In this document: positions 44,066-47,000 of the stretch, one piece after another
How the letters are laid out: every line of letters starts with the position of its first letter
Position numbering within the stretch: position 1 is the first letter of the stretch
From: Polytrichum commune
Taxonomy: Eukaryota > Streptophyta > Polytrichopsida > Polytrichales > Polytrichaceae
DNA length: 64,000 bases
Assembly (NCBI GenBank): GCA_950295325.1
Contig: OX485806.1
Coordinates: 1,550,001 to 1,614,000, forward strand
Direction: 5' to 3'
Translations under genes and position numbers: made by a program
The notes under the pieces: model-generated
Told to the model about the DNA's origin: nothing
Databases searched by the model: none
What the model saw: only the letters and a program-made list of their open reading frames with translations

Positions 44066-47000
44066 ATGGCTGCGGCCACAGGGGGTCCGAGGAATAATAA
44101 TAACCGGAACGGCAGGGAGGACTTGGCGGAGGATGAGCATCTCGTGTTTGAGACAAGCGCGGGGGTAGAGGTCATCTCCAGTTTCGATCAGATGGGCATC
44201 CGGGAGGACTTGTTACGCGGAATTTATGCCTACGGTTTTGAAAAGCCTTCTGCCATCCAGCAGCGTGCGGTGATGCCCATTATCAGTGGTCGGGATGCTA
44301 TTGCCCAGGCGCAGTCTGGAACCGGAAAGACGTCCATGATTGCTCTGGCTGTTTGTCAAATGATCGACACTGCCACCCGCGAGTGAGATTCTCATCCTTA
44401 TGTATTTTCAGAGATTTCTTTAGTATATGGAGAAATTGGTGACATTATTATTGCAATGTTCTTGTCTTGCAATGGTTGGCAGTTAAAAGAAGCCAGGTTT
44501 ACGTTTATGTAAGTAATACCCTAGGGTGATGTGAACTCATGGTTCACTTGGGGGATGGTCTTTGTATGAGTGAAGTCGAGATTGTTACTTTAATGATCGA
44601 TACTGCCACCCGCGCGTGAGATTCTCTTGTGGCTTCTAAATTCCTTCAGTTATGGAGAAATTGGTGAATTTCTTCTTGCAATATTCTTGTCTTGCTATGG
44701 TTGGCAGTTGAGGAGCCAGGTTTATGTTTATGTCCGGAAGAAACTAGGGTGTTGAGAAATCATGGTTCACTTGTGGATGGTCTTTGTATGAGTGTAGTGG
44801 GGATTGTTACTCCATCCGCTCACTTTAATGATTGATACTGCCACCTGCAAGTGAGCTGCTCATCCTTTATTGGTACTTCCGAGAGTTCTTTAGCAATGGA
44901 GAAATTGGTGAAATTTTCTATCGATAATCTTGTCTTCCAATGGTTGGTGGTTATAAGAAGTATGTTTACGTTTAGGCCCCTAGTATCCTAGAGTGATGTG
45001 AACTCACAGTTCACTTGCGGGATGGTCTTTGTATGAGTGTAGTGGAGATTTGTTTCTCCACTCACTCTGAGAGTTCTTTAGTAATGGAGAAATTGGTGAA
45101 TTTCTTCTTGCAATATTCTTGTCTTGCAATGTTTGGCAGTCAAAAGAAGCCAGGTTTATGTTTAGGTGCATAGTATCCTAGGGTGATGTGAACCCATGGT
45201 TCACTTGCAGGATGGTCTTTGTATGTGTGTAGTAGAGATTTGTTGCTCCATCCATTCACTCTGAATTTTCTTTAGTTTAGGAGAAATTGGTGAAATTCTT
45301 CTTACAATATTCTTATCTTGCAATGATTAGCTGTTAATGGTAGCCAGGCTTACAGGCTGTATATCTAGATGTGTAGTATCTTAGGGTGATGTGAACTCAT
45401 GGTTCACTTGGGATGGTCACTGTACGAGTAGTGGTGATTTTGCTCTATCCACTCACTTTCAATTTCTGGGTGGAGAACAGGGTGCAGGCCCTTATTTTGT
45501 CGCCTACTCGAGAGCTTGCTACTCAAACAGAGAAGGTAATTCTTGCAATTGGAGACTTCATGAATGTGCAAGCACATGCATGTATTGGAGGCAAGAGCAT
45601 TGGTGAAGATATTCGGAAGCTTGAATATGGTGTGCATGTGGTGTCTGGGACACCCGGGCGTGTATATGACATGATTAAGAGGAGAACACTACGGACTCGG
45701 TCAATCAAGCTGCTTATACTGGTAGGTATATATAGTCAGGTTGTATAGAATAAATCTCTGCCTGATTTATTCTTATTGTGGATTATTGAGAGCAAATTTT
45801 ACTGGTTCACTCCACTTGATTCCTCAGTTTTAGGGTTCTATGTATTTCTGGTTAAAGAAATTTTCATCATCATATGTAGACTTGTGTAAATTGTAAATGT
45901 TTGTGATTTTATAGAGCTGACATACTTGTGGCTGTTTGGCTTGGCAGGACGAGTCAGATGAAATGCTCAGTAGAGGATTTAAGGACCAGATTTATGATGT
46001 CTATCGGTACCTACCCCCTGAACTGCAGGTAAGTGGTCTCATGAGATAGGGTTTTTATCATTTGTATGTTTGTGGAATCAGCCTGTAATCCTTGAATCTG
46101 ATCTTATTATAAAAATGGCTGGAAGCCATGAAGTTGCTGGCAAGTAGGTGTTTGAATGCTGCTCTGCCCATCGACAGATGTAGGTCATGGATGTTCATTT
46201 GCTCTATGTGGTTTGGTTATCAGTAGAAGGGGATTCAGTCTATGGCTTAAAGGCACATGAAGTAAAATGACGGAGAGATATTAAAGGTTGTGTTCTAAAA
46301 TACTTCATCACACATGGGTTGCAGGTTGTGTTAGTATCAGCTACTTTGCCTCATGAGATTTTGGAGATGACAAACAAGTTCATGACTGATCCTGTGCGGA
46401 TTCTTGTGAAGCGTGATGAGTTGACTTTGGAGGTGAGAGACACCATGAGATAGTATTAGTCCCTATATTCTTCATTCTTCTGTGAGAGAAAAGCACCTCC
46501 TGCATTTAGGGGGCTGATTGTGGTGCTCACTTGCAGATCTTTACTGTGTTGGTTGCATAATGGGCTTATGTTTGTTTTTGTCTTAAAGCATTTTCAGGTC
46601 CTCGTGCTGGTTACTCCAGTTCTGTGATCATCAAGATCATTACTTGTTCTCTGATGTTCAGTTTCATCTGATAGACTTTGTTGCTAGGTCAATGGTGTGA
46701 TTTATTTCAGGCGAAGGAAGATATAGTAGCAAATGATAAACTAGTTGACTGAACTTTTTCTGTGTCCACTATTGAACAGGGTATCAAGCAGTTTTTTGTG
46801 GCGGTTGAACGTGAAGAATGGAAGTTTGACACATTATGTGATCTTTATGACACTCTCACCATCACCCAAGCTGTCATCTTCTGCAACACAAAGCGGAAGG
46901 TTTGTTTTTCAAGAGCATAGAATGTGATGATATGTGTGAGCTGCTACTGTAGATGGATTTCTTATGGGTTTGTTTAGATTTATGAAGGTGAAGTTGAAGC

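What the first reader, a model, noticed from the sequence alone, without database searches (positions are those of the whole stretch)
44360..45480. eIF4A-III intron 1 is a five-copy tandem array that duplicates its own 5' splice site
The entire first intron of a conserved EJC-core gene consists of five diverged copies of one unit. The first three copies start with the last 24 or so bases of exon 1 plus the donor, giving two downstream decoy donors (about 44616 and 44851). Use of either would add roughly 235 or 470 nt to the mRNA, with a stop soon after the real junction (the added sequence opens with TGA), so the copies could act as a poison-exon switch. The unit also carries the near-palindrome GTGAACTCATGGTTCAC. 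Intron growth by tandem duplication across an exon edge is seldom seen so clearly.
Basis: partly seen in the sequence, partly recalled or inferred. Interest (0 to 1): 0.75.

Follow-up and report, generated by a model that had tools for sequence, protein, structure and literature searches.

The report
Five-copy intron with duplicate splice sites
The first intron of a plant gene for an RNA-marking protein grew by repeated tandem duplication that also copied the gene's own splice signal; this is real and unusually clear, but it looks like ordinary genome growth rather than a proven regulatory switch.

Summary
Intron 1 (44383-45480) of an eIF4A-III gene consists of five diverged copies of one unit (75-84% identity). 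Copies 2 and 3 repeat the last 24 nt of exon 1 and its GTGAG donor (44616, 44851). A genome search found the unit only here.

The poison-switch reading is not supported. The immediate TGA is automatic for a phase-2 intron starting GTGAG. Both decoys score below the gene's other six donors, though the c3 decoy outscores the real, weak donor on a recalled matrix.

Long-period diverged arrays are common in this genome (5 of 17 arbitrarily placed 9-kb stretches). One of 42 other gene loci has a small version of the same event (L016). I read this as neutral intron growth by tandem duplication across an exon edge, with splicing at 44383.

The stem exceeds shuffles, but only modestly once all five copies are counted (3 of 600, times five). 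It could be decoy silencing, a template-switch mutation, or chance. No transcript or relative could be examined.

The parts
44066..44382 (+). Coding part of exon 1 of eIF4A-III (ends CGC GA|, phase 2)
44383..45480 (+). Intron 1: five-copy tandem array up to the single acceptor AG at 45479-45480
44359..44382 (+). 24-nt exon-1 tail that is part of the duplicated unit
   Evidence: sequence; repeats
44383..44388 (+). True donor GTGAGA (by reading frame); weakest of the gene's 7 donors by recalled matrix and by U1 duplex energy
44361..44593 (+). copy c1
44594..44828 (+). copy c2, with exon tail and decoy donor
44829..45066 (+). copy c3, with exon tail and decoy donor; folds better than shuffles (z -4.3)
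45067..45259 (+). copy c4, no exon tail
45260..45480 (+). copy c5, no exon tail, carries the only copy of the intron's 3' end with the acceptor
44616..44621 (+). decoy donor GTGAGA in c2 (CGC|GTGAGA)
44851..44856 (+). decoy donor GTGAGC in c3 (CAA|GTGAGC)
44840..44858 (+). 5' arm of the predicted 19-bp stem that covers the c3 decoy donor
45007..45026 (+). 3' arm of that stem (one bulged base). The homologous block exists in all five copies; its pairing with a donor beats shuffles clearly only in c3 and mildly in c1
44531..44547 (+). near-palindrome GTGAACTCATGGTTCAC, c1 (homologues start at 44754, 44998, 45188, 45391)

Best explanation
This is intron growth by tandem duplication across an exon edge. 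An ancestral first intron of about 230 nt was duplicated at least twice with different breakpoints. One breakpoint lay 24 nt inside exon 1, so that c2 and c3 carry exon tail and donor; the other lay about 30 nt inside the intron (c3/c4 and c4/c5 junctions). Unequal exchange raised the count to five. The unit always stops short of the acceptor, so the array multiplied the donor and perhaps the branch-point region (CTCACT) but not the 3' splice site. The reading frame is therefore restored only by 44383 to 45481, and the inner donors are expected to be little used. Shown: copies, junction types, no other match in the genome search, reading frame. Inferred: ancestral length, order of events, and use of 44383.
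For: Five copies at 75-84% identity; the unit found nowhere else in the genome search. Two junction types are visible: CTCACTTT|AATGAT at c2/c3 (TTACTTT|AATGAT at c1/c2) and TCACT|CTGA at c3/c4 and c4/c5. One unit is about as long as the gene's other introns (167-347 nt). Diverged long-period arrays are common in this genome: TRF period of 80 or more in 5 of 17 arbitrarily placed 9-kb stretches; direct repeats of 80 nt or more within 1.5 kb in 14 of 17. A second exon-edge duplication (exon tail plus donor, 79.5%) lies in L016, 1 of 42 other gene loci; 3 more loci have a two-copy duplication between exon matches. Only 44383 keeps the frame. Both decoys score below the gene's other six donors. 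The tree of copies has low support (53-54%).
Against: None of the 42 other gene loci has three or more copies, so within the genes examined this is an extreme case. The c3 decoy outscores the real donor on the recalled matrix, and only 2 of 113 internal GTs of the other introns score as high. The longest invariant run of the unit is the donor-complementary block (17 ungapped columns, reached by 343 of 20000 permutations), and c3 folds unusually well. These hint at more than drift. No relative and no transcript could be examined.
Confidence: 0.74

Rival explanations
1. Disarmed decoys. After duplication the extra donors were costly. The best of them, in c3, was silenced by a 19-bp stem between its donor and the 3' arm of the near-palindrome, which hides 44851 from U1 snRNP; c2 has a poorer -1 base (A to C); c4 and c5 lack exon tail and donor.
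For: c3 stem: duplex -32.6 kcal/mol, reached by 0 of 300 shuffles of the copy body; z -4.3, 0 of 200 shuffles. The changes that separate c3 from the consensus donor and partner block improve pairing far more than random changes do (1 of 20000 under each of two assumed ancestors; post hoc). The c3 decoy is the least accessible of nine donors compared at all three fold widths, and is paired 1.00, 0.89 of it with this block, in the whole-intron ensemble. [quoted passage not shown]
Against: A whole-copy mutation null gives 3 of 600 for c3, about 0.025 after counting five copies. c2's best own pairing is unremarkable and not even with its block (62 of 300), and the c2 donor is no weaker than the real one by U1 energy (-4.7 and -4.6), so its 'silencing' rests on a recalled matrix. 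A template-switch mutation can perfect a stem in one event without selection (PMC8794818, abstract).
Confidence: 0.11
2. Poison-donor switch. Regulated use of 44616 or 44851 yields a 106-codon open frame and decay by NMD, setting eIF4A-III level.
For: Geometry: stop 229 or 464 nt upstream of the next junction. Plant NMD is triggered by such introns and uses eIF4A3 (PMC3711448, abstract and passages). The real donor is the weakest of the gene's seven, and c3 outscores it on a recalled matrix.
Against: The stop is automatic; c3 is predicted buried and c2 scores low on the matrix; no obvious NMD features were noted in Arabidopsis eIF4A3 (passage); retention of the intron would give the same stop without any decoy.
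Confidence: 0.07
3. The repeated units act as dosage elements (splicing enhancer, transcription enhancer or intron-mediated enhancement) and the donors are by-products.
For: Two blocks are invariant in 5 of 5 copies apart from indels: GGAGAAATTGGTGA and GTTCACTTG..GGATGGTC. It is the first intron.
Against: The recalled IME motif TTNGATYTG is absent from 44066-48000. No Rfam match near a gathering score. Little sign of a structure shared by the copies: 1 pair of 54 with a change on both sides, covariation term +3.44.
Confidence: 0.06

Closest known systems
Intron gain by tandem genomic duplication (reviewed in PMC3443670, passages seen; Drosophila cases in PMC2891723, passages seen)
   Same: Tandem duplication puts exon sequence and a splice signal inside an intron; premature stops and possibly NMD colour its fate.
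   Different: There a new intron arises from duplicated exon with AGGT; here an existing intron lengthened, only 24 nt per unit are exonic (in three of five copies), and no new intron position is seen.
Human introns from tandem arrays (a title cited in papers of the listing; the paper itself not seen, content recalled)
   Same: An intron made of an array of repeats.
   Different: Not compared in detail.
Poison exons / alternative splicing coupled to NMD (e.g. PMC6547761, search listing only)
   Same: A stop upstream of a junction if the inner donor is used.
   Different: No evidence of use, regulation or conservation here.
Base pairing that obstructs cryptic splice sites (PMC8052449, abstract and passages)
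   Same: A cryptic donor inside a predicted stem.
   Different: The human set is defined by conservation between species, which is untested here; one copy only.
Template-switch mutations that create or mend hairpins (PMC8794818, abstract and outline)
   Same: Clustered changes that perfect an imperfect inverted repeat, as seen in c3.
   Different: No ancestor or relative to show a single event; c3's two arms are not exact reverse complements (G-U pairs and a bulge).

Membership tests
Tandem duplication across an exon-intron edge | Head-to-tail copies of one unit | tested here: met
Tandem duplication across an exon-intron edge | Copied unit includes exon sequence and splice site | tested here: met
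   c2 and c3; not c4, c5
Tandem duplication across an exon-intron edge | Unduplicated state in a relative | not testable with these tools
   the collections offered hold no other plant nuclear genomes
Intron gain by AGGT duplication | Intron body derived from exon | tested here: not met
   only 24 nt of a unit are exonic
Poison exon / NMD switch | Alternative product has a stop more than 50 nt before a junction | tested here: met
   automatic for phase 2 with GTGAG
Poison exon / NMD switch | Alternative site is used and accumulates when NMD is blocked | not testable with these tools
   no RNA-seq held
Poison exon / NMD switch | Competitive alternative donor | tested here: inconclusive
   c3 scores above the real donor on a recalled matrix and equal on U1 energy, but is predicted buried; c2 is weaker on the matrix and equal on U1 energy
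Structure-obstructed cryptic donor | Stem over the donor beyond chance | tested here: inconclusive
   0 of 200 and 0 of 300 shuffles but 3 of 600 in the whole-copy mutation null, one copy of five
Structure-obstructed cryptic donor | Compensatory changes between species | not testable with these tools
   no relatives held

The most novel reading that the evidence does not exclude
The array is a donor/anti-donor system. Each unit carries a conserved block related to the reverse complement of the exon-1 tail and donor (three donors, five anti-donor blocks), and competing stems decide whether the true donor or a decoy is open. Expression of the EJC helicase would then be set by RNA folding of an intron that arose by tandem duplication, with the c3 decoy as a latent poison site held shut by its stem.
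Probability: 0.07. Interest if true: 0.8.

Novelty: new member of a known kind. Interest (0 to 1): 0.4.

Why it matters
It is a clean case of an intron quintupled by tandem duplication that copied its own donor, in a gene whose splicing precision should matter. With the second case in L016 it suggests that exon-edge duplication is a recurrent way for introns to grow in this genome. That makes testable how cells cope with extra in-line donors: by mutation of the copy, by loss of the exon tail, or by folding. As a regulatory switch it remains unproven.

Tried and rejected
Dispersed repeat or transposon: rejected, the unit has five matches genome-wide, all here, and no similarity to ten other arrays or repeat stretches compared. 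Structured RNA such as a snoRNA: three Rfam matches at E up to 5 in 43800-48000, one of them touching intron 1, all far below gathering scores. Shared RNA fold of the five copies: covariation term +3.44, one double change in 54 pairs.

Real donor held by anti-donor blocks: the best partner in the c1 body is the block (9 of 300 shuffles), likewise in c3 (1 of 300), c4 (34 of 300) and c5 (42 of 300). In the c2 body the best partner is elsewhere, at 44684 (29 of 300). Along the pre-mRNA a GC-rich exon-1 stretch at 44147 pairs best with the real donor; the c3 and c1 blocks come second and third. In the whole-intron ensemble all five blocks together take about 0.19 of the real donor. So this is kept only as the novel case.

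Order of duplications from a tree: support 53-54%, no conclusion. Organism: the seven largest contigs seen sum to about 406 of 408 Mb (lengths), and a B3 domain fits a land plant. That seven chromosomes suggest a Polytrichaceae moss is a recalled guess; one paper search listed nothing in support. Prior report of this locus: the rows shown by the searches named none, but the library is partial and the listings are capped. The donor matrix is recalled, not trained on this genome.

Survey limits: the 42 loci (20 DEAD-box, 16 kinesin, 6 CCT) were picked by me from matches, not at random. The figure of at least 105 introns counts gaps of over 50 nt between exon matches. The automatic exon overlap did not flag L016, whose edge was seen from tblastn and by reading. 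The 17 nine-kb stretches stand at round coordinates chosen by me.

I therefore lowered 'disarmed decoys' from 0.13 to 0.11 and the novel case from 0.08 to 0.07.

Full report
Gene and intron. The window holds an eIF4A-III gene with eight exons (CDS 44066-47953, 411 aa). The protein matches human eIF4A-III at E 6.5e-218 and eIF4A-I at 2.2e-175. In the genome (408 Mb, 64 contigs) the nearest paralogue exons are 60-71% identical, so no second eIF4A-III was found. Intron 1 runs from 44383 to 45480, joins CGC GA|G GTG, and is 1098 nt; the other six introns are 167-347 nt.

Array. Cut at homologous points, the region 44361-45480 gives five copies with 75-84% identity and K2P 0.18-0.30. The self-comparison shows off-diagonals at one, two, three and four unit lengths, 785 hot windows against 0 in 200 shuffles. 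A single unit finds five places in the genome, all here. The exact 17-mer near-palindrome occurs twice in the genome, both in this intron.

What the unit contains. Copies c1 to c3 begin with 24 nt of exon 1 and GTGAG; c4 and c5 begin about 30 nt further on than that donor. The 3' ends of c2, c3 and c5 hold CTCACT, and c4 TTCACT, which could include a branch point (recalled consensus); c1 lacks it. The acceptor and about 20 nt before it occur once, at the end of c5. So donors number three, acceptors one. Two junction types..ACTTT|AATGAT (c1/c2, c2/c3) and TCACT|CTGA (c3/c4, c4/c5), require at least two separate duplications, followed by copying of each type.

Decoy donors. Use of 44616 or 44851 adds 233 or 468 nt and ends the frame at once (TGA after Glu106). 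This follows from phase 2 plus GTGAG and would also be true of a retained intron. On a recalled plant matrix the real donor scores 0.25, c2 -1.33, c3 2.52, the other six donors 3.3-8.8; U1 duplex energies are -4.6, -4.7 and -4.6 against -5.7 to -13.2. So the c3 decoy is not worse than the real donor by sequence alone. Of 113 internal GTs in the other introns, 2 reach the c3 score and 22 the c2 score; 10 reach either decoy by U1 energy. The best GT in intron 1 by the matrix is 44509 (3.63, U1 -7.0), private to c1; 44960 (2.91) also exceeds c3.

Base rates. TRF arrays of period 80 or more occur in 5 of 17 arbitrarily placed 9-kb stretches of this genome and in 0 of 20 DEAD-box gene loci; the window has one, this array. 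By blastn, direct repeats of 80 nt or more within 1.5 kb occur in 14 of the 17 stretches and 2 of the 20 loci. Ten arrays or repeat stretches compared do not resemble each other or this one. Among 42 gene loci (115,942 b, at least 105 introns) four have a local direct duplication of 40 nt or more: L004, L010, L016, L057, each two-copy. In L016 the copy spans an exon edge: 81 nt of exon ending CAG and the donor GTCAGG (175) recur at 462 in the same intron, 79.5% identical over 117 columns. So the process is present in this genome, and the five-copy case is its extreme in what I examined.

Structure. c3 folds at -77.5 kcal/mol, z -4.3, 0 of 200 shuffles as good; c1, c2, c4 and c5 do not stand out, and the whole intron has z -2.2 on 12 shuffles. 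Refolded with the exon tail, c1 has z -1.1 and c2 +0.3. The reason for c3 is a 19-bp stem with one bulge between GCCACCTGCAAGTGAGCTG, which contains the 44851 donor, and CAGTTCACTTGCGGGATGGT, the 3' arm of the near-palindrome and beyond. Its energy is reached by 0 of 300 shuffles; for c1's own donor and body the figure is 9 of 300, for c2's 62 of 300 (and there the best partner is not the block), and for six other introns of the gene 76, 129, 89, 100, 101 and 11 of 200. Random mutation of consensus arms reaches the c3 energy once in 20000 for each of two assumed ancestors, a test chosen after seeing the stem. The fairer whole-copy null gives 3 of 600 for c3, and 77, 119, 80 and 140 of 150 for c1, c2, c4 and c5. 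The donor-complementary block is the longest invariant run of the alignment (17 columns, gapped columns left out; 343 of 20000 permutations), although the best 22-column window, at the same place, is not unusual (1981 of 20000). By local folding the c3 decoy is the least accessible of nine donors at three widths; the real donor stands at the 30th, 46th and 7th percentile of all GTs. In the ensemble of 44300-45500 the c3 donor is paired 1.00, and 0.89 with this block; the real donor is paired 0.82 but diffusely. Folding of a 1.2-kb RNA is a rough guide.

Reading. The plainest account is neutral growth: old, diverged, found only at this locus, in a genome that makes such arrays often, with a unit about the length of an ordinary intron of this gene. 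The fates of the copied donors (poorer -1 base in c2, burial in c3, absence of exon tail in c4 and c5) would fit decoy silencing, but each also fits drift, and a template switch between imperfect inverted repeats can perfect a stem in one event (PMC8794818, abstract and outline). A poison switch has the right geometry for plant NMD (PMC3711448, abstract and passages) but no evidence of use.

Limits. No plant genome other than the window's own and no transcript data were available. Everything about splice choice is inference. The age of the array, its presence in relatives, and the use of 44383 are untested.

Noticed in passing
L016:89-203 and 376-492 (G000:C4:648100-649900): A DEAD-box gene intron holds a 79.5% copy of the end of its own upstream exon plus donor. 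The copied 81 nt keep an open frame (7 nt changes in synonymous codons, 8 in changed ones), so an alternative exon is possible as well as a relic.
   Followed up: partly
L022, L027, L031, L034, L037: Diverged tandem arrays, several with periods of about 223-231 bp, in 5 of 17 arbitrarily placed 9-kb stretches; ten compared arrays or repeat stretches are unrelated in sequence.
   Followed up: partly
44509: TAT|GTAAGTAA, the highest-scoring donor-like GT of intron 1 by the recalled matrix, private to c1; its use would add 126 nt.
   Followed up: no
44593-44615 and 44828-44850: Both intronic exon-tail copies keep an ATG in frame with exon 2 if spliced from their own donors, so an intronic start could give a protein lacking residues 1-98.
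   Followed up: no
23991-24226 and 24439-24675: A two-copy direct repeat of about 240 nt, 74.6% identical, elsewhere in the window.
   Followed up: no
59658-61103: ORF with a MULE transposase domain (Pfam E 1.7e-8).
   Followed up: no
5876-6715: ORF with a YqaJ-like viral recombinase domain (Pfam E 1.7e-21) in a plant nuclear contig.
   Followed up: no
9484-10161: Minus-strand ORF with a B3 domain (E 1.6e-7); neighbouring minus-strand ORFs at 10374-14163 look similar by eye.
   Followed up: no
57681-57860: 21-bp tandem array (8.3 copies) upstream of the MULE ORF.
   Followed up: no
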